In this document: positions 1-38,920 of the stretch, piece by piece
How positions within the stretch are numbered: the first letter of the stretch is position 1
How the letters are laid out: each line of letters starts with the position of its first letter
Source of the DNA: Utricularia gibba
Lineage: Eukaryota > Streptophyta > Magnoliopsida > Lamiales > Lentibulariaceae
Reading direction: 5' to 3'
DNA length: 64,000 nucleotides
NCBI GenBank assembly: GCA_002189035.1
Contig: NEEC01000024.1
Span: 1 to 64,000, forward strand
Translations under genes and position numbers: made by a program
The notes under the pieces: model-generated
Seen by the model: the letters and a program-made list of their open reading frames with translations, nothing else
Databases searched by the model: none
What the model was told of the DNA's origin: nothing

Positions 1-306
1 CTGACTCCTTTGCCACATCGGGTCCTACTCGACGAAAATCGTGCTGCACTTATTGAAGTTAGGATGTCATGAGCACCCAAAATGGTTTTCTCAACCGCAT
101 GCTTTTATATTTGATAAGGCGCTCTCGTGGGGCAACGGTATCGAGCAGGTGGTCGAGTCGAGCTCGGGCCCATAGTCATTTGTGGCTCGGCAAAAAACTT
201 GATGCATTTCTTAACGTTGGGTTTTAATTGGCTGCCTACATGGTTTCTCAAGGAAAAGCTTGTCGTTTTTTGGGCGGGTGATGTCGTTGTGAACTTCGTT
301 CTGACC
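1..306 (+). repeat. Left-edge unit with GATAAG / CAGGTGG variant haplotype
   Basis: The window opens inside a unit, at CTGACTCCTTTGCC. At 111 it reads TTGATAAGGC where most units have CTGAGGAGGC, and at 143-152 it reads GAGCAGGTGG where most have GAGAAGGAGG. This linked pair is not seen again in block I. It recurs at 45,766-45,804 and 47,318-47,359, with partial forms at 44,841, 45,153 and 60,331. The unit is otherwise ordinary. Confidence 0.85.
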
Positions 307-397
307 CAAGGTTCGGTCTGACTCTTTGCCACATCGGGTCCTACTCGACGAAAATCGTGATGCACTTATTGAAGTTAGGATGTCATGAGCACCCAAA

Positions 398-554
398 ATG
401 GTTTTCTCAACCGCATGCTTTATATCTGAGGAGGCGCTCTCGTGGGGCAACGGTATCGAGAAGGAGGTCGAGTCGAGCTCGGGCCCATAGTCATTTGTGG
501 CTCGGCAAAAAACTTGATGCATTTCTTAACGTTGGGTTTTAATTGGCTGCCTAC
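398..554 (+). repeat. Half-unit A (157 bp) of the monomer
   Basis: This is the first half of the monomer, starting at ATGGTTTTCTCAA. It aligns with half-unit B (555-712). Positions 501-536 match 659-694 at 27 of 36 bases without gaps. Positions 537-554 match 695-712 at 9 of 18, and both end exactly before ATGGTT. Weaker collinear similarity continues further in: TCTCGTGGGG here against TGTCGTTGTG at 596 in half B, each followed by an AAC. The halves therefore appear to be an old tandem duplication of a unit of about 158 bp. Confidence 0.85.
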
Positions 555-712
555 ATGGTTTCTCAAGGAAAAGCTTGTCGTTTTTGGGCGGGTGATGTCG
601 TTGTGAACTTCGTTCTGACCCAAGGTTCGGTCTGACTCCTTTGCCACATCGGGTCCTACTCGACGAAAATCGTGATGCACTTATTGAAGTTAGGATGTCA
701 TGAGCACCCAAA
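555..712 (+). repeat. Half-unit B (158 bp) of the monomer
   Basis: This is the second half of the monomer, starting at ATGGTTTCTCAAGG, which lacks one T relative to the half-A anchor. It contains the single HindIII site and the hypervariable junction at 621-645. It is homologous to half A over its last 54 bases, as described for half A. The two halves are now too diverged to be called the same monomer, so the working repeat length is 315 bp. Confidence 0.85.
621..645 (+). other. Hypervariable junction segment of the monomer (reference copy)
   Basis: In the reference unit this segment reads CAAGGTTCGGTCTGACTCCT followed by TTGCC. It is the most deletion-prone phase of the monomer. Other units read GGTTCCTTTGCC, GGTCCTTTGCC, GGTCTGACTCC, GGTTTGACTCC, GGTTCCTGACTCC, GGTTCTTTGCC, AACCTTTGCC, GGGTGACTCC or AACTGACTCC. 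By hand count roughly 70 of about 120 junctions before 37 kb are shortened, against about five of some 80 after 39.4 kb. The sequences on both sides stay intact. Confidence 0.9.
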
Positions 713-2490
713 ATGGTTTTCTCAACCGCATGCTTTATATCTGAGGAGGCGCTCTCGTGGGGCAACGGTATCGAGAAGGAGGTCGAGTCGAGCTCGGGCC
801 ATAGTCATTTGTAGCTCGGCAAAAAACTTGATGCATTTCTTAACGTTGGGTTTTAATTGGCTGCCTACATGGTTTCTCAAGGAAAAGCTTGTCGTTTTTG
901 GCGGGTGATGTCGTTGTGAACTTCGTTCTGACCCAAGGTCTGACTCCTTTGCCACATCGGGTCCTACTCGACGAAAATCGTGATGCACTTATTGAAGTTA
1001 GGATGTCATGAGCACCCAAAATGGTTTTCTCAACCGCATGCTTTATATCTGAGGAGGCGCTCTCGTGGGGCAACGGTATCGAGAAGGAGGTCGAGTCGAG
1101 CTCGGGCCCATAGTCATTTGTGGCTCGGCAAAAAACTTGATGCATTTCTTAACGTTGGGTTTTAATTGGCTGCCTACATGGTTTCTCAAGGAAAAGCTTG
1201 TCGTTTTTGGGCGGGTGATGTCGTTGTGAACTTCGTTCTGACCCAAGGTTTGACTCCTTTGCCACATCGGGTCCTACTCGACGAAAATCGTGCTGCACTT
1301 ATTGAAGTTAGGATGTCATGAGCACCCAAAATGGTTTTCTCAACCGCATGCTTTATATCTGAGGAGGCGCTCTCGTGGGGCAACGGTATCGAGAAGGAGG
1401 TCGAGTCGAGCTCGGGCCCATAGTCATTTGTGGCTCGGCAAAAAACTTGATGCATTTCTTAACGTTGGGTTTTAATTGGCTGCCTACATGGTTTCTCAAG
1501 GAAAAGCTTGTCGTTTTTGGGCGGGTGATGTCGTTGTGAACTTCGTTCTGACCCAAGGTTCGGTCTGACTCCTTTGCCACATCGGGTCCTACTCGACGAA
1601 AATCGTGCTGCACTTATTGAAGTTAGGATGTCATGAGCACCCAAAATGGTTTTCTCAACCGCATGCTTTATATCTGAGGAGGCGCTCTCGTGGGGCAACG
1701 GTATCGAGAAGGAGGTCGAGTCGAGCTCGGGCCCATAGTCATTTGTGGCTCGGCAAAAAACTTGATGCATTTCTTAACGTTGGGTTTTAATTGGCTGCCT
1801 ACATGGTTTCTCAAGGAAAAGCTTGTCGTTTTTGGGCGGGTGATGTCGTTGTGAACTTCGTTCTGACCCAAGTTCGGTCTGACTCCTTTGCCACATCGGG
1901 TCCTACTCGACGAAAATCGTGATGCACTTATTGAAGTTAGGATGTCATAAGCACCCAAAATGGTTTTCTCAACCGCATGCTTTATATCTGAGGAGGCGCT
2001 CTCGTGGGGCAACGGTATCGAGAAGGAGGTCGAGTCGAGCTCGGGCCCATAGTCATTTGTAGCTCGGCAAAAAAACTTGATGCATTTCTTAACGTTGGGT
2101 TTTAATTGGCTGCCTACATGGTTTCTCAAGGAAAAGCTTGTCGTTTTTGGGCGGGTGATGTCGTTGTGAACTTCGTTCTGACCCAAGGTTCGGTCTGACT
2201 CCTTTGCCACATCGGGTCCTACTCGACGAAAATCGTGCTGCACTTATTGAAGTTAGGATGTCATGAGCACCCAAAATGGTTTTTCTCAACCGCATGCTTT
2301 ATATCTGAGGAGGCGCTCTCGTGGGGCAACGGTATCGAGAAGGAGGTCGAGTCGAGCTCGGGCCCATAGTCATTTGTAGCTCGGCAAAAAACTTGATGCA
2401 TTTCTTAACGTTGGGTTTTAATTGGCTGCCTACATGGTTTCTCAAGGAAAAGCTTGTCGTTTTTGGGCGGGTGATGTCGTTGTGAACTTC

Positions 2491-2512
2491 GTTCTGACCC
2501 AACCTTTGCCAC
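2491..2512 (+). other. Extreme junction deletion
   Basis: This unit joins GTTCTGACCCAA directly to CCTTTGCCAC and has lost about 14 bp of the junction. It is one of the shortest junctions in the array and illustrates that the hotspot tolerates complete loss. Confidence 0.9.
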
Positions 2513-5500
2513 ATCGGGTCCTACTCGACGAAAATCGTGATGCACTTATTGAAGTTAGGATGTCATGAGCACCCAAAATGGTTTTCTCAACCGCATGCTT
2601 TATATCTGAGGAGGCGCTCTCGTGGGCAACGGTATCGAGAAGGAGGTCGAGTCGAGCTCGGGCCATAGTCATTTGTAGCTCGGCAAAAAACTTGATGCAT
2701 TTCTTAACGTTGGGTTTTAATTGGCTGCCTACATGGTTTCTCAAGGAAAAGCTTGTCGTTTTGGGCGGGTGATGTCGTTGTGAACTTCGTTCTGACCCAA
2801 GGTTTGACTCCTTTGCCACATCGGGTCCTACTCGACGAAAATCGTGCTGCACTTATTGAAGTTAGGATGTCATGAGCACCCAAAATGGTTTTCTCAACCG
2901 CATGCTTTATATTGAGGAGGCGCTCTCGTGGGGCAACGGTATCGAGAGGGGTCGAGTCGAGCTCGGGCCCATAGTCATTTGTAGCTCGGCAAAAAACTTG
3001 ATGCATTTCTTAACGTTGGGTTTTAATTGGCTGCCTACATGGTTTCTCAAGGAAAAGCTTGTCGTTTTTGGGCGGGTGATGTCGTTGTGAACTTCGTTCT
3101 GACCCAAGGTTCCTGACTCCTTTGCCACATCGGGTCCTACTCGACGAAAATCGTGATGCACTTATTGAAGTTAGGATGTCATGAGCACCCAAAATGGTTT
3201 TCTCAACCGCATGCTTTATATCTGAGGAGGCGCTCGTGGGGCAACGGTATCGAGAAGGAGGTCGAGTCGAGCTCGGGCCCATAGTCATTTGTAGCTCGGC
3301 AAAAAACTTGATGCATTTCTTAACGTTGGGTTTTAATTGGCTGCCTACATGGTTTCTCAAGGAAAAGCTTGTCGTTTTTGGGGGTGATGTCGTTGTGAAC
3401 TTCGTTCTGACCCAAGGTTCGGTCTGACTCCTTTGCCACATCGGGTCCTACTCGACGAAAATCGTGCTGCACTTATTGAAGTTAGGATGTCATGAGCACC
3501 CAAAATGGTTTTCTCAACCGCATGCTTTATATTGAGGAGGCGCTCTCGTGGGGCAACGGTATCGAGAAGGAGGTCGAGTCGAGCTCGGGCCCATAGTCAT
3601 TTGTGGCTCGGCAAAAAACTTGATGCATTTCTTAACGTTGGGTTTTAATTGGCTGCCTACATGGTTTCTCAAGGAAAAGCTTGTCGTTTTTGGCGGGTGA
3701 TGTCGTTGTGAACTTCGTTCTGACCCAAGGTTCGGTCTGACTCCTTTGCCACATCGGGTCCTACTCGACGAAAATCGTGATGCACTTATTGAAGTTAGGA
3801 TGTCATAAGCACCCAAAATGGTTTTCTCAACCGCATGCTTTATATCTGAGGAGGCGCTCTCGTGGGGCAACGGTATCGAGAAGGAGGTCGAGTCGAGCTC
3901 GGGCCCATAGTCATTTGTGCTCGGCAAAAACTTGATGCATTTCTTAACGTTGGGTTTTAATTGGCTGCCTACATGGTTTCTCAAGGAAAAGCTTGTCGTT
4001 TTTGGCGGGTGATGTCGTTGTGAACTTCGTTCTGACCCAAGGTCCTTTGCCACATCGGGTCCTACTCGACGAAAATCGTGATGCACTTATTGAAGTTAGG
4101 ATGTCATGAGCACCCAAAATGGTTTTCTCAACCGCATGCTTTATATTGAGGAGGCGCTCTCGTGGGCAACGGTATCGAGAAGGAGGTCGAGTCGAGCTCG
4201 GGCCCATAGTCATTTGTGGCTCGGCAAAAAACTTGATGCATTTCTTAACGTTGGGTTTTAATTGGCTGCCTACATGGTTTCTCAAGAAAAGCTTGTCGTT
4301 TTTGGGCGGTGATGTCGTTGTGAACTTCGTTCTGACCCAAGGTTCGGTCTGACTCCTTTGCCACATCGGGTCCTACTCGACGAAAATCGTGATGCACTTA
4401 TTGAAGTTAGGATGTCATAAGCACCCAAAATGGTTTTCTCAATGCTTTATATCTGAGGAGGCGCTCTCGTGGGCAACGGTATCGAAAGGAGGTCGAGTCG
4501 AGCTCGGCCCATAGTCATTTGTGCTCGGCAAAAAACTTGATGCATTTCTTAACGTTGGTTTTAATTGGCTGCCTACATGGTTTCTCAAGGAAAAGCTTGT
4601 CGTTTTTGGGCGGGTGATGTCGTTGTGAACTTCGTTCTGACCCAAGGTTCGGTCTGACTCCTTTGCACATCGGGTCCTACTCGACGAAAATCGTGCTGCA
4701 CTTATTGAAGTTAGGATGTCATGAGCACCCAAAATGGTTTTCTCAACCGCATGCTTTATATCTGAGGAGGCGCTCTCGTGGGGCAACGGTATCGAGAAGG
4801 AGGTCGAGTCGAGCTCGGGCCCATAGTCATTTGTGCTCGGCAAAAAACTTGATGCATTTCTTAACGTTGGGTTTTAATTGGCTGCCTACATGGTTTCTCA
4901 AGGAAAAGCTTGTCGTTTTTGGGCGGTGATGTCGTTGTGAACTTCGTTCTGACCCAAGGTCCTTTGCCACATCGGGTCCTACTCGACGAAAATCGTGATG
5001 CACTTATTGAAGTTAGGATGTCATGAGCACCCAAAATGGTTTTCTCAACCGCATGCTTTATATCTGAGGAGGCGCTCTCGTGGGGCAACGGTATCGAGAA
5101 GGGGTCGAGTCGAGCTCGGGCCATAGTCATTTGTGGCTCGGCAAAAAACTTGATGCATTTCTTAACGTTGGGTTTTAATTGGCTGCTACATGGTTTCTCA
5201 AGGAAAAGCTTGTCGTTTTTGGGCGGTGATGTCGTTGTGAACTTCGTTCTGACCCAAGGTTCGGTCTGACTCCTTTGCCACATCGGGTCCTACTCGACGA
5301 AAATCGTGCTGCACTTATTGAAGTTAGGATGTCATGAGCACCCAAAATGGTTTTCTCAACCGCATGCTTTATATCTGAGAGGCGCTCTCGTGGGGCAACG
5401 GTATCGAGAAGGAGGTCGAGTCGAGCTCGGGCCCATAGTCATTTGTGCTCGGCAAAAAACTTGATGCATTTCTTAACGTTGGGTTTTAATTGGCTGCCTA

Positions 5501-8500
5501 CATGGTTTCTCAAGGAAAAGCTTGTCGTTTTTGGGCGGGTGATGTCGTTGTGAACTTCGTTCTGACCCAAGGTTCCTGACTCCTTGCCACATCGGGTCCT
5601 ACTCGACGAAAATCGTGCTGCACTTATTGAAGTTAGGATGTCATGAGCACCCAAAATGGTTTTCTCAACCGCATGCTTTATATTGAGGCGCTCTCGTGGG
5701 GCAACGGTATCGAGCAGGAGGTCGAGTCGAGCTCGGGCCCATAGTCATTTGTGCTCGGAAAAACTTGATGCATTTCTTAACGTTGGGTTTTAATTGGCTG
5801 CCTACATGGTTTCTCAAGGAAAAGCTTGTCGTTTTTGGGCGGGGATGTCGTTGTGAACTTCGTTCTGACCCAAGGTTCTTTGCCACATCGGGTCCTACTC
5901 GACGAAAATCGTGCTGCACTTATTGAAGTTAGGATGTCATAAGCACCCAAAATGGTTTTCTCAACCGCATGCTTTATATCTGAGGAGGCGCTCTCGTGGG
6001 GCAACGGTATCGAGAAGGAGGTCGAGTCGAGCTCGGGCCCATAGTCATTTGTGCTCGGCAAAAAACTTGATGCATTTTAACGTTGGGTTTAATTGGCTGC
6101 CTACATGGTTTCTCAAGGAAAAGCTTGTCGTTTTGGGCGGGTGATGTCGTTGTGAACTTCGTTCTGACCCAAGGTTCGGTCTGACTCCTTTGCACTCGGG
6201 TCCTACTCGACGAAAATCGTGATGCACTTATTGAAGTTAGGATGTCATAGCACCCAAATGGTTTTCAACCGCATGCTTTATATCTGAGGAGGCGCTCTCG
6301 TGGGGCAACGGTATCGAGAAGGAGGTCGAGTCGAGCTCGGGCCCATAGTCATTTGTGCTCGGCAAAAAACTTGATGCATTTCTTAACGTTGGGTTTTAAT
6401 TGGCTGCCTACATGGTTTCTCAAGGAAAAGCTTGTCGTTTTTGGGCGGTGATGTCGTTGTGAACTTCGTTCTGACCAAGGTTCCTTTGCCACATCGGGTC
6501 CTACTCGACGAAAATCGTGATGCACTTATTGAAGTTAGGATGTCATGAGCACCCAAAATGGTTTTCTCAACCGCATGCTTTATATCTGAGGAGGCGCTCT
6601 CGTGGGGCAACGGTATCGAGAAGGGGTCGAGTCGAGCTCGGGCCCATAGTCATTTGTGCTCGGCAAAAAACTTGATGCATTTCTTAACGTTGGGTTTTAA
6701 TTGGCTGCCTACATGGTTTCTCAAGGAAAAGCTTGTCGTTTTTGGGGGTGATGTCGTTGTGAACTTCGTTCTGACCCAAGGTTCGGTCTGACTCCTTTGC
6801 CACATCGGGTCCTACTCGACGAAAATCGTGATGCACTTATTGAAGTTAGGATGTCATAGCACCCAAAATGGTTTTCTCAACCGCATGCTTTATATCTGAG
6901 GAGGCGCTCTCGTGGGGCAACGGTATCGAGAAGGAGGTCGAGTCGAGCTCGGGCCCATAGTCATTTGTGCTCGGCAAAAAACTTGATGCATTTCTTAACG
7001 TTGGGTTTTAATTGGCTGCCTACATGGTTTCTCAAGGAAAAGCTTGTCGTTTTTGGCGGGTGATGTCGTTGTGAACTTCGTTCTGACCCAAGGTTTTTTG
7101 CCACATCGGGTCCTACTCGACGAAAATCGTGATGCACTTATTGAAGTTAGGATGTCATGAGCACCCAAAATGGTTTTCAACCGCATGCTTTATATCTGAG
7201 GAGGCGCTCTCGTGGGGCAACGGTATCGAGAAGGAGGTCGAGTCGAGCTCGGGCCCATAGTCATTTGTGCTCGGCAAAAAACTTGATGCATTTCTTAACG
7301 TTGGGTTTTAATTGGCTGCCTACATGGTTTCTCAAGGAAAAGCTTGTCGTTTTTGGGCGGTGATGTCGTTGTGAACTTCGTTCTGACCCAAGTTCGGTGA
7401 CTCCTTTGCCACATCGGGTCCTACTCGACGAAATCGTGCTGCACTTATTGAAGTTAGGATGTCATGAGCACCCAAAATGGTTTTCTCAACCGCATGCTTT
7501 ATATCTGAGGAGGCGCTCTCGTGGGGCAACGGTATCGAGAAGGAGGTCGAGTCGAGCTCGGGCCCATAGTCATTTGTAGCTCGGCAAAAAACTTGATGCA
7601 TTTTTAACGTTGGGTTTTAATTGGCTGCCTACATGGTTTCTCAAGGAAAAGCTTGTCGTTTTTGGGCGGTGATGTCGTTGTGAACTTCGTTCTGACCCAA
7701 GGTTCGGTCTGACTCCTTTGCCACATCGGGTCCTACTCGACGAAAATCGTGATGCACTTATTGAAGTTAGGATGTCATGAGCACCCAAAATGGTTTTCTC
7801 AACCGCATGCTTTATATCTGAGGAGGCGCTCTCGTGGGGCAACGGTATCGAGAAGGAGGTCGAGTCGAGCTCGGGCCCATAGTCATTTGTCTCGGCAAAA
7901 AACTTGATGCATTTCTTAACGTTGGGTTTTAATTGGCTGCCTACATGGTTTCTCAAGGAAAAGCTTGTCGTTTTTGGGCGGTGATGTCGTTGTGAACTTC
8001 GTTCTGACCCAAGGTTCTGACTCCTTGCCACATCGGGTCCTACTCGACGAAAATCGTGCTGCACTTATTGAAGTTAGGATGTCATGAGCACCCAAAATGG
8101 TTTCTCAACCGCATGCTTTATATCTGAGGAGGCGCTCTCGTGGGCAACGGTATCGAGAAGGTCGAGTCGAGCTCGGGCCCATAGTCATTTGTGGCTCGGC
8201 AAAAAACTTGATGCATTTCTTAACGTTGGGTTTTAATTGGCTGCCTACATGGTTTCTCAAGGAAAAGCTTGTCGTTTTTGGGGGTGATGTCGTTGTGAAC
8301 TTCGTTCTGACCCAAGGTTCGGTCTGACTCCTTTGCCACATCGGGTCCTACTCGACGAAAATCGTGCTGCACTTATTGAAGTTAGGATGTCATGAGCACC
8401 CAAAATGGTTTTCTCAACCGCATGCTTTATATCTGAGGAGGCGCTCTCGTGGGGCAACGGTATCGAGAAGGAGGTCGAGTCGAGCTCGGGCCCATAGTCA

Positions 8501-11500
8501 TTTGTGCTCGGCAAAAAACTTGATGCATTTCTTAACGTTGGGTTTTAATTGGCTGCCTACATGGTTTCTCAAGGAAAAGCTTGTCGTTTTTGGGGGTGAT
8601 GTCGTTGTGAACTTCGTTCTGACCCAAGGTTCGGTCTGACTCCTTTGCCACATCGGGTCCTACTCGACGAAAATCGTGATGCACTTATTGAAGTTAGGAT
8701 GTCATGAGCACCCAAAATGGTTTTCTCAACCGCATGCTTATATCTGAGGAGGCGCTCTCGTGGGCAACGGTATCGAGAAGGAGGTCGAGTCGAGCTCGGG
8801 CCCATAGTCATTTGTGCTCGGCAAAAAACTTGATGCATTTCTTAACGTTGGGTTTTAATTGGCTGCCTACATGGTTTCTCAAGGAAAAGCTTGTCGTTTT
8901 TGGGCGGGTGATGTCGTTGTGAACTTCGTTCTGACCCAAGGTTCGGTCTGACTCCTTTGCCACATCGGGTCCTACTCGACGAAAATCGTGCTGCACTTAT
9001 GAAGTTAGGATGTCATGAGCACCCAAAATGGTTTTCTCAACCGCATGCTTTATATCTGAGGAGGCGCTCTCGTGGGCAACGGTATCGAGAAGGAGGTCGA
9101 GTCGAGCTCGGGCCATAGTCATTTGTGGCTCGGCAAAAAACTTGATGCATTTCTTAACGTTGGGTTTTAATTGGCTGCCTACATGGTTTCTCAAGGAAAA
9201 GCTTGTCGTTTTTGGGCGGGTGATGTCGTTGTGAACTTCGTTCTGACCCAAGGTTCGGTCTGACTCTTTGCCACATCGGGTCCTACTCGACGAAATCGTG
9301 CTGCACTTATTGAAGTTAGGATGTCATGAGCACCAAAATGGTTTTCTCAACCGCATGCTTTATATCTGAGGAGGCGCTCTCGTGGGGCAACGGTATCGAG
9401 AAGGAGGTCGAGTCGAGCTCGGGCCCATAGTCATTTGTGCTCGGCAAAAAACTTGATGCATTTCTTAACGTTGGGTTTTAATTGGCTGCCTACATGGTTT
9501 CTCAAGGAAAAGCTTGTCGTTTTTGGGCGGGTGATGTCGTTGTGAACTTCGTTCTGACCCAAGGTTCGGTCTGACTCCTTTGCCACATCGGGTCCTACTC
9601 GACGAAATCGTGCTGCACTTATTGAAGTTAGGATGTCATGAGCACCCAAAATGGTTTTCTCAACGCATGCTTTATATGAGGAGGCGCTCTCGTGGGGCAA
9701 CGGTATCGAGAAGGAGGTCGAGTCGAGCTCGGGCCCATAGTCATTTGTAGCTCGGCAAAAACTTGATGCATTTCTTAACGTTGGGTTTTAATTGGCTGCC
9801 TACATGGTTTCTCAAGGAAAAGCTTGTCGTTTTTGGGCGGTGATGTCGTTGTGAACTTCGTTCTGACCCAAGGTTCCTTTGCCACATCGGGTCCTACTCG
9901 ACGAAAATCGTGATGCACTTATTGAAGTTAGGATGTCAAAGCACCCAAAATGGTTTTCTCAACCGCATGCTTTATATCTGAGGAGGCGCTCTCGTGGGCA
10001 ACGGTATCGAGAAGGAGGTCGAGTCGAGCTCGGGCCCATAGTCATTTGTGCTCGGCAAAAAACTTGATGCATTTCTTAACGTTGGGTTTTAATTGGCTGC
10101 CTACATGGTTTCTCAAGGAAAAGCTTGTCGTTTTTGGGCGGGTGATGTCGTTGTGAACTTCGTTCTGACCCAAGGTTCGGTCTGACTCCTTTGCCACATC
10201 GGTCCTACTCGACGAAAATCGTGCTGCACTTATTGAAGTTAGGATGTCATGAGCACCAAAATGGTTTTCTCAACCGCATGCTTTATATCTGAGGAGGCGC
10301 TCTCGTGGGGCAACGGTATCGAGAAGGAGGTCGAGTCGAGCTCGGGCCCATAGTCATTTGTGCTCGGCAAAAAACTTGATGCATTTCTTAACGTTGGGTT
10401 TTAATTGGCTGCCTACATGGTTCTCAAGGAAAAGCTTGTCGTTTTTGGGCGGTGATGTCGTTGTGAACTTCGTTCTGACCCAAGGTTCGGTCTGACTCCT
10501 TTGCCACATCGGGTCCTACTCGACGAAAATCGTGCTGCACTTATTGAAGTTAGGATGTCATGAGCACCCAAAATGGTTTTCTCAACCGCATGCTTTATAT
10601 CTGAGGAGGCGCTCTCGTGGGGCAACGGTATCGAGAAGGAGGTCGAGTCGAGCTCGGGCCCATAGTCATTTGTGGCTCGGCAAAAAACTTGATGCATTTC
10701 TTAACGTTGGGTTTTAATTGGCTGCCTACATGGTTTCTCAAGGAAAAGCTTGTCGTTTTTGGGCGGTGATGTCGTTGTGAACTTCGTTCTGACCCAAGTT
10801 CGGTCTGACTCCTTTGCCACATCGGGTCCTACTCGACGAAAATCGTGATGCACTTATTGAAGTTAGGATGTCATAGCACCCAAAATGGTTTTCTCAACCG
10901 CATGCTTTATATGAGGAGGCGCTCTCGTGGGCAACGGTATCGAGAAGGAGGTCGAGTCGAGCTCGGGCCATAGTCATTGTAGCTCGGCAAAAAACTTGAT
11001 GCATTTCTTAACGTTGGGTTTTAATTGGCTGCCTACATGGTTTCTCAAGGAAAAGCTTGTCGTTTTTGGGCGGTGATGTCGTTGTGAACTTCGTTCTGAC
11101 CCAAGGTTCGGTCTGACTCCTTTGCCACATCGGTCCTACTCGACGAAAATCGTGCTGCACTTATTGAAGTTAGGATGTCATAGCACCCAAAATGGTTTTC
11201 TCAACCGCATGCTTTATATCTGAGGAGGCGCTCTCGTGGGGCAACGGTATCGAGAAGGAGGTCGAGTCGAGCTCGGGCCCATAGTCATTTGTGGCTCGGC
11301 AAAAAACTTGATGCATTTCTTAACGTTGGGTTTTAATTGGCTGCCTACATGGTTTCTCAAGGAAAAGCTTGTCGTTTTTGGGCGGGTGATGTCGTTGTGA
11401 ACTTCGTTCTGACCCAAGGTTCCTTTGCCACATCGGGTCCTACTCGACGAAAATCGTGATGCACTTATTGAAGTTAGGATGTCATGAGCACCCAAAATGG

Positions 11501-14500
11501 TTTTCTCAACCGCATGCTTTATATCTGAGGAGCGCTCTCGTGGGGCAACGGTATCGAGAAGGAGGTCGAGTCGAGCTCGGGCCCATAGTCATTTGTAGCT
11601 CGGCAAAAAACTTGATGCATTTCTTAACGTTGGGTTTTAATTGGCTGCCTACATGGTTTCTCAAGGAAAAGCTTGTCGTTTTTGGGCGGTGATGTCGTTG
11701 TGAACTTCGTTCTGACCCAAGGTTCGGTCTGACTCCTTTGCCACATCGGGTCCTACTCGACGAAAATCGTGATGCACTTATTGAAGTTAGGATGTCATGA
11801 GCACCCAAAATGGTTTTCTCAACCGCATGCTTTATATCTGAGGAGGCGCTCTCGTGGGCAACGGTATCGAGAAGGAGGTCGAGTCGAGCTCGGGCCCATA
11901 GTCATTTGTGCTCGGCAAAAAACTTGATGCATTTCTTAACGTTGGTTTTAATTGGCTGCCTACATGGTTTCTCAAGGAAAAGCTTGTCGTTTTTGGGCGG
12001 GTGATGTCGTTGTGAACTTCGTTCTGACCCAAGGTTCGGTCTGACTCCTTTGCCACATCGGTCCTACTCGACGAAAATCGTGCTGCACTTATTGAAGTTA
12101 GGATGTCATGAGCACCCAAAATGGTTTTCTCAACCGCATGCTTTATATCTGAGGAGGCGCTCTCGTGGGGCAACGGTATCGAGAAGGAGGTCGAGTCGAG
12201 CTCGGGCCCATAGTCATTTGTGCTCGGCAAAAAACTTGATGCATTTCTTAACGTTGGGTTTTAATTGGCTGCCTACATGGTTTCTCAAGGAAAAGCTTGT
12301 CGTTTTTGGGCGGTGATGTCGTTGTGAACTTCGTTCTGACCCAAGGTTCGGTCTGACTCTTTGCCACATCGGGTCCTACTCGACGAAAATCGTGCTGCAC
12401 TTATTGAAGTTAGGATGTCATGAGCACCCAAAATGGTTTTCTCAACCGCATGCTTTATATCTGAGGAGGCGCTCTCGTGGGCAACGGTATCGAGAAGGAG
12501 GTCGAGTCGAGCTCGGGCCCATAGTCATTTGTGCTCGGCAAAAAACTTGATGCATTTCTTAACGTTGGGTTTTAATTGGCTGCCTACATGGTTTCTCAAG
12601 GAAAAGCTTGTCGTTTGGGCGGTGATGTCGTTGTGAACTTCGTTCTGACCAAGGTTCCTTTGCCACATCGGGTCCTACTCGACGAAAATCGTGATGCACT
12701 TATTGAAGTTAGGATGTCATGAGCACCCAAAATGGTTTTCTCAACCGCATGCTTTATATCTGAGGAGGCGCTCTCGTGGGCAACGGTATCGAAGGAGGTC
12801 GAGTCGAGCTCGGGCCCATAGTCATTTGTGCTCGGCAAAAAACTTGATGCATTTCTTAACGTTGGGTTTTAATTGGCTGCCTACATGGTTTCTCAAGGAA
12901 AAGCTTGTCGTTTTTGGGCGGTGATGTCGTTGTGAACTTCGTTCTGACCCAAGGTTCGGTCTGACTCCTTGCCACATCGGGTCCTACTCGACGAAAATCG
13001 TGCTGCACTTATTGAAGTTAGGATGTCATAGCACCCAAAATGGTTTTCTCAACCGCATGCTTTATATCTGAGGAGGCGCTCTCGTGGGCAACGGTATCGA
13101 GAAGGAGGTCGAGTCGAGCTCGGGCCCATAGTCATTTGTGGCTCGGCAAAAAACTTGATGCATTTCTTAACGTTGGGTTTTAATTGGCTGCCTACATGGT
13201 TTCTCAAGGAAAAGCTTGTCGTTTTTGGGCGGGTGATGTTTGTGAACTTCGTTCTGACCCAAGGTCTTCCTTTGCCACATCGGGTCCTACTCGACGAAAA
13301 TCGTGATGCACTTATTGAAGTTAGGATGTCATGAGCACCCAAATGGTTTTCTCAACCGCATGCTTTATATCTGAGGAGGCGCTCTCGTGGGGCAACGGTA
13401 TCGAGAAGGAGGTCGAGTCGAGCTCGGGCCCATAGTCATTTGTAGCTCGGCAAAAAACTTGATGCATTTCTTAACGTTGGTTTTAATTGGCTGCCTACAT
13501 GGTTTCTCAAGGAAAAGCTTGTCGTTTGGGCGGGTGATGTCGTTGTGAACTTCGTTCTGACCCAAGGTTCTTTGCCACATCGGGTCCTACTCGACGAAAA
13601 TCGTGCTGCACTTATTGAAGTTAGGATGTCATGAGCACCCAAAATGGTTTTCTCAACCGCATGCTTTATATCTGAGGAGGCGCTCTCGTGGGGCAACGGT
13701 ATCGAGAAGGAGGTCGAGTCGAGCTCGGGCCCATAGTCATTGTGGCTCGGCAAAAAACTTGATGCATTTCTTAACGTTGGGTTTTAATTGGCTGCCTACA
13801 TGGTTTCTCAAGGAAAAGCTTGTCGTTTTTGGGCGGGTGATGTCGTTGTGAACTTCGTTCTGACCCAAGGTTCGGTCTGACTCCTTTGCCACATCGGGTC
13901 CTACTCGACGAAAATCGTGATGCACTTATTGAAGTTAGGATGTCATGAGCACCCAAAATGGTTTTCTCAACCGCATGCTTTATATCTGAGGAGGCGCTCT
14001 CGTGGGGCAACGGTATCGAGAAGGAGGTCGAGTCGAGCTCGGGCCCATAGTCATTTGTAGCTCGGCAAAAAAACTTGATGCATTTCTTAACGTTGGGTTT
14101 TAATTGGCTGCCTACATGGTTTCTCAAGGAAAAGCTTGTCGTTTTTGGGCGGGTGATGTCGTTGTGAACTTCGTTCTGACCCAAGGTTCGGTCTGACTCC
14201 TTTGCCACATCGGGTCCTACTCGACGAAAATCGTGCTGCACTTATTGAAGTTAGGATGTCATGAGCACCCAAAATGGTTTTCTCAACCGCATGCTTTATA
14301 TTTGAGGAGGCGCTCTCGTGGGGCAACGGTATCGAGAAGGAGGTCGAGTCGAGCTCGGGCCCATAGTCATTTGTGGCTCGGCAAAAAACTTGATGCATTT
14401 CTTAACGTTGGGTTTTAATTGGCTGCCTACATGGTTTCTCAAGGAAAAGCTTGTCGTTTTTGGGCGGGTGATGTCGTTGTGAACTTCGTTCTGACCCAAA

Positions 14501-17500
14501 GGTTCCTTTGCCACATCGGGTCCTACTCGACGAAAATCGTGATGCACTTATTGAAGTAGGATGTCATAAGCACCCAAAATGGTTTTCTCAACCGCATGCT
14601 TTATATCTGAGGAGGCGCTCTCGTGGGCAACGGTATCGAGAAGGAGGTCGAGTCGAGCTCGGGCCCATAGTCATTTGTAGCTCGGCAAAAAAACTTGATG
14701 CATTTCTTAACGTTGGGTTTTAATTGGCTGCCTACATGGTTTCTCAAGGAAAAGCTTGTCGTTTTTGGGCGGGTGATGTCGTTGTGAACTTCGTTCTGAC
14801 CCAAGGTTCGGTCTGACTCCTTTGCCACATCGGGTCCTACTCGACGAAAATCGTGCTGCACTTATTGAAGTTAGGATGTCATGAGCACCCAAAATGGTTT
14901 TCTCAACCGCATGCTTTATATCTGAGGAGGCGCTCTCGTGGGGCAACGGTATCGAGAAGGAGGTCGAGTCGAGCTCGGGCCCATAGTCATTTGTGGCTCG
15001 GCAAAAAACTTGATGCATTTCTTAACGTTGGGTTTTAATTGGCTGCCTACATGGTTTCTCAAGGAAAAGCTTGTCGTTTTTGGCGGGTGATGTCGTTGTG
15101 AACTTCGTTCTGACCCAAGGTTCGGTCTGACTCCTTTGCCACATCGGGTCCTACTCGACGAAAATCGTGATGCACTTATTGAAGTTAGGATGTCATAAGC
15201 ACCCAAAATGGTTTTCTCAACCGCATGCTTTATATCTGAGGAGGCGCTCTCGTGGGGCAACGGTATCGAGAAGGAGGTCGAGTCGAGCTCGGGCCCATAG
15301 TCATTTGTAGCTCGGCAAAAAACTTGATGCATTTCTTAACGTTGGGTTTTAATTGGCTGCCTACATGGTTTCTCAAGGAAAAGCTTGTCGTTTTTGGGCG
15401 GTGATGTCGTTGTGAACTTCGTTCTGACCCAAGGTTCCTTTGCCACATCGGGTCCTACTCGACGAAAATCGTGCTGCACTTATTGAAGTTAGGATGTCAT
15501 GAGCACCCAAAATGGTTTTCTCAACCGCATGCTTTATATCTGAGGAGGCGCTCTCGTGGGGCAACGGTATCGAGAAGGAGGTCGAGTCGAGCTCGGGCCC
15601 ATAGTCATTTGTGGCTCGGCAAAAAACTTGATGCATTTCTTAACGTTGGGTTTTAATTGGCTGCCTACATGGTTTCTCAAGGAAAAGCTTGTCGTTTTTG
15701 GGCGGGTGATGTCGTTGTGAACTTCGTTCTGACCCAAGGTTCGGTCTGACTCCTTTGCCACATCGGGTCCTACTCGACGAAAATCGTGATGCACTTATTG
15801 AAGTTAGGATGTCATGAGCACCCAAAATGGTTTTCTCAACCGCATGCTTTATATCTGAGGAGGCGCTCTCGTGGGCAACGGTATCGAGAAGGAGGTCGAG
15901 TCGAGCTCGGGCCCATAGTCATTTGTAGCTCGGCAAAAAACTTGATGCATTTCTTAACGTTGGGTTTTAATTGGCTGCCTACATGGTTTCTCAAGGAAAA
16001 GCTTGTCGTTTTTGGGCGGGTGATGTCGTTGTGAACTTCGTTCTGACCCAAGGTTGACTCCTTTGCCACATCGGGTCCTACTCGACGAAAATCGTGATGC
16101 ACTTATTGAAGTTAGGATGTCATGAGCACCCAAAATGGTTTTCTCAACCGCATGCTTTATATCTGAGGAGGCGCTCTCGTGGGGCAACGGTATCGAGAAG
16201 GAGGTCGAGTCGAGCTCGGGCCCATAGTCATTTGTAGCTCGGCAAAAAACTTGATGCATTTCTTAACGTTGGTTTTAATTGGCTGCCTACATGGTTTCTC
16301 AAGGAAAAGCTTGTCGTTTTTGGGCGGGTGATGTCGTTGTGAACTTCGTTCTGACCCAAGGTTCGTCTGACTCCTTTGCCACATCGGGTCCTACTCGACG
16401 AAAATCGTGCTGCACTTATTGAAGTTAGGATGTCATGAGCACCCAAAATGGTTTTCTCAACCGCATGCTTTATATCTGATAAGGCGCTCTCGTGGGCAAC
16501 GGTATCGAGAAGAGGTCGAGTCGAGCTCGGGCCCATAGTCATTTGTGGCTCGGCAAAAAACTTGATGCATTTCTTAACGTTGGGTTTTAATTGGCTGCCT
16601 ACATGGTTTCTCAAGGAAAAGCTTGTCGTTTTTGGCGGGTGATGTCGTTGTGAACTTCGTTCTGACCCAAGGTTCCTTTGCCACATCGGGTCCTACTCGA
16701 CGAAAATCGTGATGCACTTATTGAAGTTAGGATGTCATGAGCACCCAAAATGGTTTTCTCAACCGCATGCTTTATATCTGAGGAGGCGCTCTCGTGGGGC
16801 AACGGTATCGAGAAGGAGGTCGAGTCGAGCTCGGGCCCATAGTCATTTGTAGCTCGGCAAAAAACTTGATGCATTTCTTAACGTTGGGTTTTAATTGGCT
16901 GCCTACATGGTTTCTCAAGGAAAAGCTTGTCGTTTTTGGGCGGGTGATGTCGTTGTGAACTTCGTTCTGACCCAAGGTTCGGTCTGACTCCTTTGCCACA
17001 TCGGGTCCTACTCGACGAAAATCGTGATGCACTTATTGAAGTTAGGATGTCATGAGCACCCAAAATGGTTTTCTCAACCGCATGCTTTATATCTGAGGAG
17101 GCGCTCTCGTGGGCAACGGTATCGAGAAGGAGGTCGAGTCGAGCTCGGCCCATAGTCATTTGTGGCTCGGCAAAAAACTTGATGCATTTCTTAACGTTGG
17201 GTTTTAATTGGCTGCCTACATGGTTTCTCAAGGAAAAGCTTGTCGTTTTTGGGCGGGTGATGTCGTTGTGAACTTCGTTCTGACCCAAGGTTCCTTTGCC
17301 ACATCGGGTCCTACTCGACGAAAATCGTGCTGCACTTATTGAAGTTAGGATGTCATGAGCACCCAAAATGGTTTTCTCAACCGCATGCTTTATATCTGAG
17401 GAGGCGCTCTCGTGGGGCAACGGTATCGAGAAGGAGGTCGAGTCGAGCTCGGGCCCATAGTCATTTGTAGCTCGGCAAAAAACTTGATGCATTTCTTAAC

Positions 17501-19127
17501 GTTGGGTTTTAATTGGCTGCCTACATGGTTTCTCAAGGAAAAGCTTGTCGTTTTTGGGCGGTGATGTCGTTGTGAACTTCGTTCTGACCCAAGGTTCGGT
17601 CTGACTCCTTTGCCACATCGGGTCCTACTCGACGAAAATCGTGATGCACTTATTGAAGTTAGGATGTCATAAGCACCCAAAATGTTTTCTCAACCGCATG
17701 CTTTATATCTGAGGAGGCGCTCTCGTGGGGCAACGGTATCGAGAAGGAGGTCGAGTCGAGCTCGGGCCCATAGTCATTTGTAGCTCGGCAAAAAACTTGA
17801 TGCATTTCTTAACGTTGGGTTTTAATTGGCTGCCTACATGTTTCTCAAGGAAAAGCTTGTCGTTTTTGGGCGGGTGATGTCGTTGTGAACTTCGTTCTGA
17901 CCCAAGGTCCTTTGCCACATCGGGTCCTACTCGACGAAAATCGTGCTGCACTTATTGAAGTTAGGATGTCATGAGCACCCAAAATGGTTTTCTCAACCGC
18001 ATGCTTTATATCTGAGGAGGCGCTCTCGTGGGGCAACGGTATCGAGAAGGAGGTCGAGTCGAGCTCGGGCCCATAGTCATTTGTGGCTCGGCAAAAAACT
18101 TGATGCATTTCTTAACGTTGGGTTTTAATTGGCTGCCTACATGGTTTCTCAAGGAAAAGCTTGTCGTTTTTTGGGGTGATGTGTTGTGAACTTCGTTCTG
18201 ACCCAAGGTTCTGACTCCTTTGCCACATCGGGTCCTACTCGACGAAAATCGTGGCTGCACTTATTGAAGTTAGGATGTCATGAGCACCCAAAATGGTTTT
18301 CTCAACCGCATGCTTATATCTGAGGAGGCGCTCTCGTGGGGCAACGGTATCGAGAAGGAGGTCGAGTCGAGCTCGGGCCCATAGTCATTTGTGGCTCGGC
18401 AAAAAACTTGATGCATTTCTTAACGTTGGGTTTTAATTGGCTGCCTACATGGTTTCTCAAGGAAAAGCTTGTCGTTTTTTGGCGGGTGATGTCGTTGTGA
18501 ACTTCGTTCTGACCCAAGGTTCGGTCTGACTCCTTTGCCACATCGGTCCTACTCGACGAAAATCGTGCTGCACTTATTGAAGTTAGGATGTCATGAGCAC
18601 CCAAAATGGTTTTCTCAACCGCATGCTTTATATCTGAGGAGGCGCTCTCGTGGGGCAACGGTATCGAGAAGGAGGTCGAGTCGAGCTCGGGCCCATAGTC
18701 ATTTGTGGCTCGGCAAAAAACTTGATGCATTTCTTAACGTTGGGTTTTAATTGGCTGCCTACATGGTTTCTCAAGGAAAAGCTTGTCGTTTTTGGGCGGG
18801 TGATCGTTGTGAACTCGTTCTGACCCAAGGTTCGGTCTGACTCCTTGCCACATCGGGTCCTACTCGACGAAAATCGTGATGCACTTATTGAAGTTAGGAT
18901 GTCATGAGCACCCAAAATGGTTTCTCAACCGCATGCTTATATCTGAGGAGGCGCTCTCGTGGGGCAACGGTATCGAGAAGGAGGTCGAGTCGAGCTCGGC
19001 CCATAGTCATTTGTAGCTCGGCAAAAAACTTGATGCATTTCTTAACGTTGGTTTTAATTGGCTGCCTACATGGTTTCTCAAGGAAAAGCTTGTCGTTTTT
19101 GGGCGGTGATGTCGTTGAACTTCGTTC

Positions 19128-20010
19128 TGACCCAAGGTTCCTTCCTTTGCCACATCGGTCCTACTCGACGAAAATCGTGCTGCACTTATTGAAGTTAGGA
19201 TGTCATGAGCACCCAAAATGGTTTTCTCAACCGCATGCTTTATATTTGAAAGGCGCTCTCGTGGGCAACGGTATCGAGAAGGAGGTCGAGTCGAGCTCGG
19301 CCCATAGTCATTTGTGCTCGGCAACTTGATGCATTTCTTAACGTTGGTTTTAATTGGCTGCCTACATGGTTCTCAAGGAAAAGTGATGTCGTTGTGAACT
19401 TCGTTCTGACCCTCCTTTGCCACATCGGGTCCTACTCGACGAAAATCGTGATGCACTTATTGAAGTTAGGATGTCATGAGCACCCAAAATGGTTTTCTCA
19501 ACCGCATGCTTTATATCTGAGGAGGCGCTCTCGTGGGGCAACGGTATCGAAAGGAGGTCGAGTCGAGCTCGGGCCCATAGTCATTTGTAGCTCGGCAAAA
19601 AACTTGATGCATTTCTTAACGTTGGTTTTAATTGGCTGCCTACATGGTTTCTCAAGGAAAAGCTTGTCGTTTTTGGGCGGGTGATGTCGTTGTGAACTTC
19701 GTTCTGACCAAGGGTGACTCCTTTGCCACATCGGGTCCTACTCGACGAAAATCTGCACTTATTGAAGTTAGGATGTCATCAAAATTTTCTCAACCGCATG
19801 CTTTATATCTGAGGAGGCGCTCTCGTGGGGCAACGGTATCGAGAAGGAGGTCGAGTCGAGCTCGGGCCCATAGTCATTTGTGCTCGGCAAAAAACTTGAT
19901 GCATTTCTTAACGTTGGGTTTTAATTGGCTGCCTACATTTCTCAAGGAAAAGCTTGTCGTTTTTGGGCGTGATGTCTTGTGAACTTCGTTCTGACCCAAA
20001 CTCCTTTGCC
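19128..20010 (+). repeat. Cluster of deletion-rich units in block I
   Basis: Three to four successive units here carry several losses each. At about 19,321 GCAACTTGATGC lacks five A residues. At 19,379-19,386 GGAAAAG jumps to TGATGTCG, losing CTTGTCGTTTTTGGGCGGG. At 19,411 the junction is reduced to GACCCTCCTTTGCC. At about 19,750 AAAATCTGCAC lacks the GTG, and at 19,779 GTCATCAAAATTTTC lacks GAGCACC. Flanking units are normal, so this is a local cluster, either a decayed patch or poorly polished sequence. Confidence 0.85.
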
Positions 20011-23000
20011 ACATCGGGTCCTACTCGACGAAATCGTGCTGCACTTATTGAAGTTAGGATGTCATGAGCACCAAAATGGTTTTCTCAACCGCATGCTTTA
20101 TATCTGAGGAGGCGCTCTCGTGGGGCAACGGTATCGAGAAGGAGGTCGAGTCGAGCTCGGGCCCATAGTCATTTGTGCTCGGCAAAAAACTTGATGCATT
20201 TCTTAACGTTGGGTTTTAATTGGCTGCCTACATGGTTTCTCAAGGAAAAGCTTGTCGTTTTGGGGGTGATGTCGTTGTGAACTTCGTTCTGACCCAAGGT
20301 TCGGTCTGACTCCTTTGCCACATCGGGTCTACTCGAAAATCGTGCTGCACTTATTGAAGTTAGGATGTCAATGAGCACCAAAATGGTTTTCTCAACCGCA
20401 TGCTTTATATCTGAGGAGGCGCTCTCGTGGGGCAACGGTATCGAGAAGGAGGTCGAGTCGAGCTCGGGCCCATAGTCATTTGTAGCTCGGCAAAAAACTT
20501 GATGCATTTCTTAACGTTGGGTTTTAATTGGCTGCCTACATGGTTTCTCAAGGAAAAGCTTGTCGTTTTTGGGCGGGTGATGTCGTTGTGAACTTCGTTC
20601 TGACCCAAGGTTCCTTTGCCACATCGGGTCCTACTCGACGAAAATCGTGCTGCACTTATTGAAGTTAGGATGTCATGAGCACCCAAAATGGTTTTCTCAA
20701 CCGCATGCTTTATATCTGAGGAGGCGCTCTCGTGGGGCAACGGTATCGAGAAGGAGGTCGAGTCGAGCTCGGGCCCATAGTCATTTGTAGCTCGGCAAAA
20801 AACTTGATGCATTTCTTAACGTTGGGTTTTAATTGGCTGCCTACATGGTTTCTCAAGGAAAAGCTTGTCGTTTTTGGCGGTGATGTCGTTGTGAACTTCG
20901 TTCTGACCCAAGGTCTGACTCCTTTGCCACATCGGGTCCTACTCGACGAAAATCGTGCTGCACTTATTGAAGTTAGATGTCATGAGCACCCAAAATGGTT
21001 TTCTCAACCGCATGCTTTATATCTGAGGAGGCGCTCTCGTGGGGCAACGGTATCGAGAAGGAGGTCGAGTCGAGCTCGGCCCATAGTCATTTGTGGCTCG
21101 GCAAAAAAACTTGATGCATTTCTTAACGTTGGGTTTTAATTGGCTGCCTACATGGTTTCTCAAGGAAAAGCTTGTCGTTTTGGGCGGTGATGTCGTTGTG
21201 AACTTCGTTCTGACCCAAGTTCGGTCTGACTCCTTTGCCACATCGGGTCCTACTCGACGAAAATCGTTATTGAAGTTAGGATGTCATGAGCACCCAAAAT
21301 GGTTTTCTCAACCGCATGCTTTATATCTGAGGAGGCGCTCTCGTGGGGCAACGGTATCGAGAAGGAGGTCGAGTCGAGCTCGGGCCCATAGTCATTTGTA
21401 GCTCGGCAAAAAACTTGATGCATTTCTTAACGTTGGGTTTTAATTGGCTGCCTACATGGTTTCTCAAGGAAAAGCTTGTCGTTTTTGGGCGGGTGATGTC
21501 GTTGTGAACTTCGTTCTGACCCAAGGTTCCTTTGCCACATCGGTCCTACTCGACGAAAATCGTGCTGCACTTTGAAGTTAGGATGTCATGAGCACCCAAA
21601 ATGGTTTTCTCAACCGCATGCTTTATATCTGAGGAGGCGCTCTCGTGGGGCAACGGTATCGAGAAGGAGGTCGAGTCGAGCTCGGGCCCATAGTCATTTG
21701 TGGCTCGGCAAAAAACTTGATGCATTTCTTAACGTTGGGTTTTAATTGGCTGCCTACATGGTTTCTCAAGGAAAAGCTTGTCGTTTTTGGGCGGGTGATG
21801 TCGTTGTGAACTTCGTTCTGACCCAAGGGTGACTCCTTTGCCACATCGGGTCCTACTCGACGAAAATCGTGATGCACTTATTGAAGTTAGGATGTCATGA
21901 GCACCCAAAATGGTTTTCTCAACCGCATGCTTTATATCTGAGGAGGCGCTCTCGTGGGGCAACGGTATCGAGAAGGAGGTCGAGTCGAGCTCGGGCCCAT
22001 AGTCATTTGTGGCTCGGCAAAAAACTTGATGCATTTCTTAACGTTGGGTTTTAATTGGCTGCCTACATGGTTTCTCAAGGAAAAGCTTGTCGTTTTTGGG
22101 CGGGTGATGTCGTTGTGAACTTCGTTCTGACCCAACTGACTCCTTTGCCACATCGGTCCTACTCGACGAAAATCGTGATGCACTTATTGAAGTTAGGATG
22201 TCATGAGCACCCAAAATGGTTTTCTCAACCGCATGCTTTATATCTGAGGAGGCGCTCTCGTGGGGCAACGGTATCGAGAAGGAGGTCGAGTCGAGCTCGG
22301 GCCCATAGTCATTTGTAGCTCGGCAAAAAACTTGATGCATTCTTAACGTTGGGTTTTAATTGGCTGCCTACATGGTTTCTCAAGGAAAAGCTTGTCGTTT
22401 TTGGGGGGTGATGTCGTTGTGAACTTCGTTCTGACCCAAGGTTCCTGACTCCTTTGCCACATCGGGTCCTACTCGACGAAAATCGTGATGCACTTATTGA
22501 AGTTAGGATGTCATGAGCACCCAAAATGGTTTTCTCAACCGCATGCTTTATATCTGAGGCGCTCTCGTGGGGCAACGGTATCGAGAAGGAGGTCGAGTCG
22601 AGCTCGGGCCCATAGTCATTTAGCTCGGCAAAAAACTTGATGCATTTCTTAACGTTGGGTTTTAATTGGCTGCCTACATGGTTTCTCAAGGAAAAGCTTG
22701 TCGTTTTGGGCATGTCGTTGTGAACTTCGTTCTGACCCAAAGGTTCCTTTGCCACATCGGGTCCTACTCGACGAAAATCGTGCTGCACTTATTGAAGTTA
22801 GGATGTCATGAGCACCCAAAATGGTTTTCTCAACCGCATGCTTTATATCTGAGGAGGCGCTCTCGTGGGGCAACGGTATCGAGAAGGAGGTCGAGTCGAG
22901 CTCGGGCCCATAGTCATTTGTGGCTCGGCAAAAAACTTGATGCATTTCTTAACGTTGGGTTTTAATTGGCTGCCTACATGGTTTCTCAAGAAAAGCTTGT

Positions 23001-25904: not shown

Positions 25905-26290
25905 ACCGCATGCTTTATATCAGGCGCTCTCGTGGGGCAACGGTATCGAGAAGGAGGTCGAGTCGAGCTCGGGCCCATAGTCATTTGTAGCTCGGCAAAA
26001 AACTTGATGCATTTCTTAACGTTGGGTTTAATACATTGGCTGTCGTTTTTGGGCGGGTGATGTCGTTGTGAACTTCGTTCTGACCCAAGGGACTCCTTCC
26101 ACATCAACGAAAATCGTGAAATTGAGCTTGTCGTGCTTTATATCTGAGGAGGCGCTCTCGTGGGCAACGGTATCGAGAAGGAGGTCGAGTCGTTGTGAAC
26201 TTCGTTCTGACATGGTTTCTCAAGGAAAAGCTTGTCGTTTTTGGGCGGGTGATGTGCCACCCAAGGTTCGGGTCCTACTCGACGAAAATC
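25905..26290 (+). repeat. Shuffled units between block I and block II
   Basis: Monomer segments are present but out of order. At 25,911-25,923 TTTATAT joins CAGGCGCTC. At 26,027-26,045 GGGTTTAATACATTGGC joins TGTCGTTTTT, skipping GGCTGCCTAC through AAAAGCT. At 26,191 GGTCGAGTCG from half A jumps to TTGTGAACTTCG of half B through a shared GTCG. At 26,209 it steps back to CATGGTTTCTCAAGG. At 26,255 GATGTGCCACCCAAGGTTCG joins GGTCCTACTCG. The joins fall at 2-5 bp shared sequences. This fits template switching in vivo or a consensus error in assembly. Confidence 0.85.
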
Positions 26291-36960: not shown

Positions 36961-37395
36961 GACTCCTTTGCCACATCGGGTCCTACTCGACGAAAATCGT
37001 GCTGCACTTATTGAAGTTAGGATGTCATGAGCACCAAATGGTTTTCTCAACCGCATGCTTTATATTGAGGAGGCGCTCTCGTGGGGCAACGGTATCGAGG
37101 GAGGTCGAGTCGAGCTCGGGCCCATAGTCATTTGGCTCGGCAAAAAACTTGTGATGTCTGATTTTCTTACTCGACGTTGGGTTTTAAGTTGGCTGCCTAA
37201 CATGGATTCTCGTCAAGGAAAAGGCTTGGTCGTTTTTGGGCGGGTGATGTCGTTGTGAACTTCGTTCTGACCCAAGGTTCGGTCTGACTCCTTTGCCACA
37301 TCGGGTCCTACTCGACGAAAAGTCGAGTGCTCGCACTTTATTGAAGTTAGGTATGGTCATGAGCACCTCAAAACTGGTTTCTCGTGCACACCGCA
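36961..37395 (+). repeat. Degenerate unit with scattered small insertions
   Basis: From about 37,100 to 37,390 the unit is readable but interrupted by extra bases. Examples are ACTTGTGATGTCTGATTTTC at 37,147, GTTTTAAGTTGGCTGCC at 37,181, CATGGATTCTCGTCAAGG at 37,201, AAGGCTTGGTCG at 37,220, GGTATGGTCATGAGCACCTC at 37,350, and CTCGTGCACACCGCATGC at 37,381. Units elsewhere almost always lose bases, so an insertion-rich unit is unusual and resembles uncorrected single-molecule read error. Confidence 0.85.
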
Positions 37396-38040
37396 TGCTT
37401 TATATCTGAGGAGGCGCTCTCGTGGGGCAACGGTATCGAGAAGGAGGTCGAGTCGAGCTCGGGCCCATAGTCATTTGTGGCTCGGCAAAAAACTTGATGC
37501 ATTTCTTAACGTTGGGTTTTAATTGGCTGCCTACATGGTTTCTCAAGGAAAAGCTTGTCGTTTTTGGGCGGGTGATGTCGTTGTGAACTTCGTTCTGACC
37601 CAAGGTTCCTGACTCCTGCCACATCGGGTCCTACTCGACGAAATCGTGCTGCACTTATTGAAGTTAGGATGTCATGAGCACCCAAAATGGTTTTCTCAAC
37701 CGCATGCTTTATATCTGAGGAGGCGCTCTCGTGGGGCAACGGTATCGAGAAGGAGGTCGAGTCGAGCTCGGGCCCATAGTCATTTGTGGCTCGGCAAAAA
37801 ACTTGATGCATTTCTTAACGTTGGGTTTTAATTGGCTGCCTACATGGTTTCTCAAGGAAAAGCTTGTCGTTTTTGGGCGGGTGATGTCGTTGTGAACTTC
37901 GTTCTGACCCAAGGTTCGGTCTGACTCCTTTGCCACATCGGGTCCTACTCGACGAAAATCGTGATGCACTTATTGAAGTTAGGATGTCATGAGCACCCAA
38001 AATGGTTTTCTCAACCGCATGCTTTATATCTGAGGAGGCG

Positions 38041-38385: not shown

Positions 38386-38589
38386 GGTCGAGTCGAGCTC
38401 GGGCCCATAGTCATTTGTGGCTCGGCAAAAAACTTGATGCATTTCTTAACGTTGGGTTTTAATTGGCTGCCTACATGGTTTCTCAAGGAAAAGCTTGTCG
38501 TTTTTGGGCGGGTGATGTCGTTGTGAACTTCGTTCTGACCCAAGGTTCGGTCTGACTCCTTTGCCACATCGGGTCCTACTCGACGAAAT

Positions 38590-38760: not shown

Positions 38761-38920
38761 AGGTCGAGTCGAGCTCGGGCCCATAGTCATTTGTAGCTCG
38801 GCAAAAAACTTGATGCATTTCTTAACGTTGGGTTTTAATTGGCTGCCTACATGGTTTCTCAAGGAAAAGCTTGTCGTTTTTGGGCGGGTGATGTCGTTGT
38901 GAACTTCGTTCTGACCCAAG

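What the first reader, a model, noticed from the sequence alone, without database searches (positions are those of the whole stretch)
398..712. The 315-bp satellite unit is a diverged dimer of a half-unit of about 158 bp
ATGGTT(T)TCTCAA occurs twice per unit, at 398 and 555 and again at 713, spacings of 157 and 158. CTCGGCAAAAAACTTGATGC at 501 and CTCGACGAAAATCGTGATGC at 659 are 158 apart. Over the ungapped block 501-560 against 659-718 I count 42 of 60 matches, with 27 of 36 in the first part, and a further six bases match after a one-base gap. Collinear weaker similarity (TCTCGT against TGTCGT at half offsets 40 and 41) extends it. The ancestral unit was therefore nucleosome-sized, and the array shifted to a doubled period. 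That the dimer then replaced the monomer as amplification unit is inference.
Basis: seen in the sequence. Interest (0 to 1): 0.75.

Follow-up and report, generated by a model that had tools for sequence, protein, structure and literature searches.

The report
Dimeric plant satellite, two 158-bp halves
The 315-base repeat that fills this piece of a bladderwort (Utricularia) genome really is two ancient, drifted copies of one 158-base unit that now multiply together as a pair, a well-known way for such satellite DNA to evolve.

Summary
The consensus of 186 units is 315 bp (halves A=158, B=157); its best self-lag is 157, score 25 against a maximum of 12 in 200 dinucleotide shuffles. In the window alone only the first ~80 bases of the half-unit are clearly similar; related arrays in the same genome extend the similarity over the whole half-unit. 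A tree of 99 half-units from nine contigs puts every A on one side and every B on the other (100/100). So one duplication of a ~158-bp unit preceded all sampled sub-families, and A-B has been amplified as a unit since. Intact halves alternate almost without exception. No array of the single half-unit turned up, but that search was limited. The genome is a Utricularia, very probably U. gibba. The family has about 14,600 A-box copies (~4.6 Mb, ~4.6%). It forms the inner end of a telomere-bearing 3.7-Mb contig, and no exact box lies in contigs C1-C33, which include contigs with telomeres at both ends. Pericentromeric or centromeric location is the best guess, unproven. A new member of a known kind (dimeric satellite).

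The parts
1..64000 (+). Satellite array, head to tail, unit about 315 bp (most units 295-316); fills the window and goes on to about position 87,000 of its contig
398..712 (+).
501..658 (+). Half-unit A (158 bp)
659..815 (+). Half-unit B (157 bp in the consensus)
501..560 (+). Best conserved block of half A; 42/60 identical to 659-718
659..718 (+). Best conserved block of half B, holds the box GATGCAYTTAWTGAAGTTAGGATGTCATGA
26019..26255 (+). Broken stretch of the array: order of half-unit pieces disturbed (two A fragments adjacent)
38578..39384 (+). Broken stretch: fragments, B-B and A-A neighbours, phase jumps; the main interruption of regular order in the window
62408..64000 (+). Less regular end of the window with several deletions and phase jumps

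Best explanation
A Utricularia satellite DNA family whose 315-bp unit is a fossil dimer. Shown: two ~158-bp halves A and B descend from one ancestral unit; the split is older than all sampled sub-families; since then A-B has behaved as one unit, kept homogeneous within each array (about 95% between units here). Inferred: an array of near-identical ~158-bp monomers existed; two diverged neighbours were caught together by unequal crossing-over, gene conversion or re-integration of a circular excision product. Once A and B had drifted apart, pairing in register with the 315-bp period was favoured over half-register pairing, so the dimer became the amplification unit. A similar step has happened again in one sub-family, where two and three dimers form a higher-order repeat (626 and about 935 bp). 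The arrays are probably (peri)centromeric heterochromatin, by analogy and contig position; that step is not shown.
For: Self-lag 157 far above shuffles. A/B tree split 100/100 for 99 halves from nine contigs. A/B identity rises in independent arrays, and both portions of the half-unit are significant there (0 of 1000 shuffles for the balanced consensus and for families F3 and F4). Polarised test 34 against 11. Alternation of A and B in all arrays read. Higher-order periods 626, 935, 1561 in L016 and 617-627 spacings in C92. Position: telomere repeats at the start and the satellite at the end of the 3.70-Mb contig C213; satellite at both ends of C460 (881 kb) and C510 (382 kb), each array pointing inwards; none beside the nine telomere ends read.
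Against: No surviving array of the single half-unit was found, so the monomer stage is reconstructed, not seen. The second part of the half-unit is not significant within the window family alone. No centromere mark (CENH3) or in-situ data; the chromosomal role is inference. The assembly is fragmented at these arrays.
Confidence: 0.93

Rival explanations
1. Only a ~60-80 bp box is shared: a functional or mobile segment was duplicated into two otherwise unrelated spacers, so there never was a 158-bp unit.
For: In the window the similarity is concentrated in the first ~80 bases of each half; the rest is not significant alone (75 of 1000 shuffles).
Against: In families F3 and F4 and in the balanced consensus the second portion is also significantly alike, collinear and at the same offset (0 of 1000 shuffles; 0.57 identity at zero shift against a mean of 0.29 at other shifts). 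Half lengths are nearly equal (158 and 157).
Confidence: 0.05
2. The box is alike in A and B because gene conversion or selection (for example a binding site) keeps it alike, not because the two halves descend from one unit.
For: The GATGCAYTT box is the best conserved part in both halves and in all families.
Against: A and B never mix in the tree, as they would under continuing conversion, and where the window family has changed it has moved away from the other half (34 against 11). Constraint on the box may still act in addition to descent.
Confidence: 0.1
3. Assembly artefact: the dimer period or the regular alternation was produced by collapse of long reads.
For: Many one-base length differences in homopolymers look like long-read error.
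Against: Many contigs and several diverged families, one with a higher-order period, show the same A-B order; within-unit A/B similarity cannot come from collapse.
Confidence: 0.01

Closest known systems
Dimeric alpha-satellite (suprachromosomal families 1-2) of primates
   Same: Two alternating diverged monomers, up to about 30% different, amplified as a pair; higher-order repeats built on top (PMC8122249).
   Different: No sequence relation claimed; half-unit 158 bp against 171 bp; here A and B are only about 50-62% identical, so the dimer looks older; no CENP-B-box test was made.
Gn7c161, the 161-bp (peri)centromere-associated tandem repeat of Genlisea nigrocaulis (same plant family)
   Same: Almost the same length as the half-unit; sister genus; most abundant tandem repeat of a tiny genome (PMC4542322).
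Plant centromeric satellites with ~155-bp units (rice CentO, maize CentC; from memory)
   Same: Unit length close to that of the half-unit.
   Different: No sequence comparison was made; those are amplified as monomers.

Membership tests
Satellite DNA | Long head-to-tail arrays of non-coding, homogenised units in high copy number | tested here: met
   Array of ~87 kb on C460, 95% mean pairwise unit identity; 14,606 A-box and 8,856 B-box matches in the genome, 0 in reversed-pattern controls
Dimeric satellite (alternating two-monomer unit) | The unit is two homologous monomers | tested here: met
   Lag 157 against shuffles
Dimeric satellite (alternating two-monomer unit) | The two monomer types form separate clades and alternate | tested here: met
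   Tree 100/100; alternation
Dimeric satellite (alternating two-monomer unit) | Arrays of the single monomer survive in the genome or in relatives (supporting, not strictly required) | tested here: inconclusive
   Two tandem-monomer queries found no full-length match, but only the best ~40 candidates were scored; relatives could not be searched
Centromeric satellite | Bound by CENH3 / present at primary constrictions | not testable with these tools
   Only contig position is known
Subtelomeric satellite | Lies next to telomere repeats | tested here: not met
   Nine telomere-bearing contig ends (C1, C4, C213, C244, C317 starts; C3, C4, C142, C321 ends) show no satellite in the 600 bases read; on C213 the satellite is at the opposite end. 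Deeper subtelomeric sequence was not read
Gn7c161 (Genlisea) | Sequence homology | tested here: inconclusive
   Only the two primer sequences were available; no better than shuffles

The most novel reading that the evidence does not exclude
This family marks the centromeres of those chromosomes that did not assemble, while the complete telomere-to-telomere chromosomes lack it: one nucleus with satellite-based and satellite-free centromeres, and the published view that U. gibba centromeres lack satellites would be an effect of looking at the chromosomes that could be assembled.
Probability: 0.35. Interest if true: 0.65.

Novelty: new member of a known kind. Interest (0 to 1): 0.4.

Why it matters
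The dimer is a clear case of period doubling, with independent sub-families that let the ancestor be inferred and the doubling be placed before their split; in one sub-family a second level (626/935 bp) is visible. More widely, a family of at least ~4.6 Mb in a 100-Mb genome known for its compactness qualifies the statement in the literature that putative U. gibba centromeres lack satellite repeats (PMC8333044), which was made from an assembly with four complete chromosomes.

Tried and rejected
Plasmid collection: no match, as expected for a plant repeat. Rfam on the window: no RNA family. 18S rRNA search for identification failed twice for technical reasons. Motif matching with four errors could not tell A boxes from B boxes, because the halves are too alike there; replaced by best-scoring local matches. 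Higher-order structure inside the window family: no preferred unit spacing beyond a faint excess. Primer-based link to the Genlisea 161-bp repeat: no better than shuffles. An ancestral-state run with IQ-TREE did not start; replaced by family-balanced consensus and outgroup comparison. Literature searches found no description of a 315-bp Utricularia repeat, in an open-access library only.

Full report
What was checked. The strings, positions and counts in the finding are correct. A consensus of 186 units from the window is 315 bp long; units are on average 95% identical. Scored at every circular lag, the consensus has one outstanding self-similarity, lag 157, score 25; the next lag scores 9, and 200 dinucleotide-preserving shuffles, each allowed its best lag, reach at most 12. 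Half A starts at the CTCGGCAAAA box (501) and is 158 bp; half B starts at CTCGACGAAA (659) and is 157 bp in the consensus.

Setting. The window is the first 64 kb of contig C460 (880,676 bp) of a 100-Mb genome in 516 contigs. The array runs to about 87 kb of C460, where it decays into degraded copies next to an element with integrase domains (H2C2 zinc-binding and a weak rve match; Ty3/gypsy-like). The far end of the same contig holds a diverged version of the same satellite on the other strand (L016). Telomere repeats of the plant type TTTAGGG are present. The mitochondrial-type COX1 on contig C515 reads LLLLCCSALVE: two contiguous cysteines, the state reported for all Utricularia species and for one Genlisea section (PMC11688529). 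With a genome size of 100 Mb and a few complete chromosome contigs, the plant is a Utricularia, very probably U. gibba; the species name is inference.

Related arrays. Further groups of arrays were sampled: F2 (C460 far end, C452, C456, C133, C99, C92), with higher-order periods of two and three dimers; F3 (C150, C183, C209, C217, C252, C349, end of C402 and others), a 2.33-kb unit that holds about three dimers plus a long stretch of inverted 62-bp repeats; F4 (C186, C208, C130) and an F1-like group (C137, C218); C510; and isolated degraded copies at C460:87,344 and 128,786.

Dimer test with relatives. In a maximum-likelihood tree of 99 half-units from nine contigs all 52 A halves lie on one side and all 47 B halves on the other side of a single branch, support 100/100. 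So the duplication that made A and B is older than the split of the sampled families. Identity between A and B is 0.50 in the window family, 0.51-0.54 in its near relatives, F2 and F4, 0.55 in C510, 0.62 in F3 and 0.62 between family-balanced consensus halves. Where the window's A differs from A in the related arrays (34 columns) the related state equals B in 22 and the window's state in 7; for B the figures are 12 and 4 of 22. The columns are not independent, so this is a direction, not an exact probability. The second portion of the half-unit, not significant in the window family alone (75 of 1000 shuffles), is significant in F3, F4 and the balanced consensus (0 of 1000) and less strongly in F2 (4 of 1000). 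The similarity therefore covered the whole half-unit in the ancestor.

Amplification unit. The window decomposes into 424 half-unit matches, 213 A and 211 B; only three neighbours are of the same type and all three are fragments at broken places. Other arrays alternate likewise. In the less regular stretch C460:64-84 kb there are eight same-type neighbours, seven of which involve partial matches and one of which is a pair of full B halves 33 bases apart (L013:7591-7938). No tandem A-A or B-B array was found with two monomer-tandem queries, but the search scores only the best ~40 candidates. The dimer is thus the unit that is copied; the earlier monomer array is inferred.

How it probably works. 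Shown: common descent of the halves, age order, alternation, homogeneity within arrays, a second level of multimer in F2. Inferred: unequal exchange or circle-mediated amplification of a diverged neighbour pair, after which in-register pairing at 315 bp prevails over half-register pairing. Chromosomal role: the satellite forms the inner end of contig C213, whose other end is a telomere, and both ends of C460 and C510; it is not in the outer 600 bases of the nine telomere ends read. Exact copies of the A and B boxes are absent from C1-C33, which include C3 and C4 with telomeres at both ends; the listing gives exact matches only in its first 100 rows, so mismatched copies there are not excluded. 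Pericentromeric or centromeric heterochromatin is the likeliest place. Abundance: 14,606 A-box matches with up to two mismatches, 8,856 B-box matches with up to three, no control matches; at ~312 bp per unit the A count means about 4.6 Mb.

Known or new. Dimeric satellites with alternating monomers are well known (alpha-satellite SF1-2, PMC8122249). This is a new member of that kind. It was not found described for Utricularia in the open-access papers searched; a paper on U. gibba says that its putative centromeric regions lack satellite repeats (PMC8333044). Whether there is a real contradiction depends on where these arrays lie, which sequence alone cannot tell.

Noticed in passing
C460 870,677-880,676 (L016); C92: Sub-family F2 has a higher-order structure of two and three dimers (626, ~935, 1561 bp), a second round of multimer formation.
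   Followed up: partly
L048 (C219:8257-11488) and contigs C150, C183, C209, C217, C252, C349: A 2.33-kb tandem unit in which about three satellite dimers are joined to a stretch of 62-bp sub-repeats in inverted arrangement (fold-back-element-like): a satellite that seems to have captured an insertion and been amplified with it.
   Followed up: partly
contigs C1-C4, C213, C460, C510: The telomere-to-telomere contigs seem to lack the satellite (exact box), while contigs that stop internally end in it; published statements on satellite-free centromeres may rest on the chromosomes that assembled.
   Followed up: partly
window, consensus phase 105-135 of the unit (for example around 930-945, 1245-1256, 2500-2506): Recurrent 10-12 base deletions near the short direct repeat TCTGAC, making two length classes of units (about 302 and 313).
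   Followed up: no
window, homopolymer runs: About 340 one-base deletions against the consensus, many in homopolymer runs; likely long-read assembly error.
   Followed up: no
L064:583-2271 (C515): COX1 with the CC motif, interrupted by an intron whose open reading frame continues from the upstream exon (looks like an intron-encoded homing endonuclease).
   Followed up: no
C460:88,000-94,000 (L015): Ty3/gypsy-like element directly beside the array edge (Integrase_H2C2).
   Followed up: no
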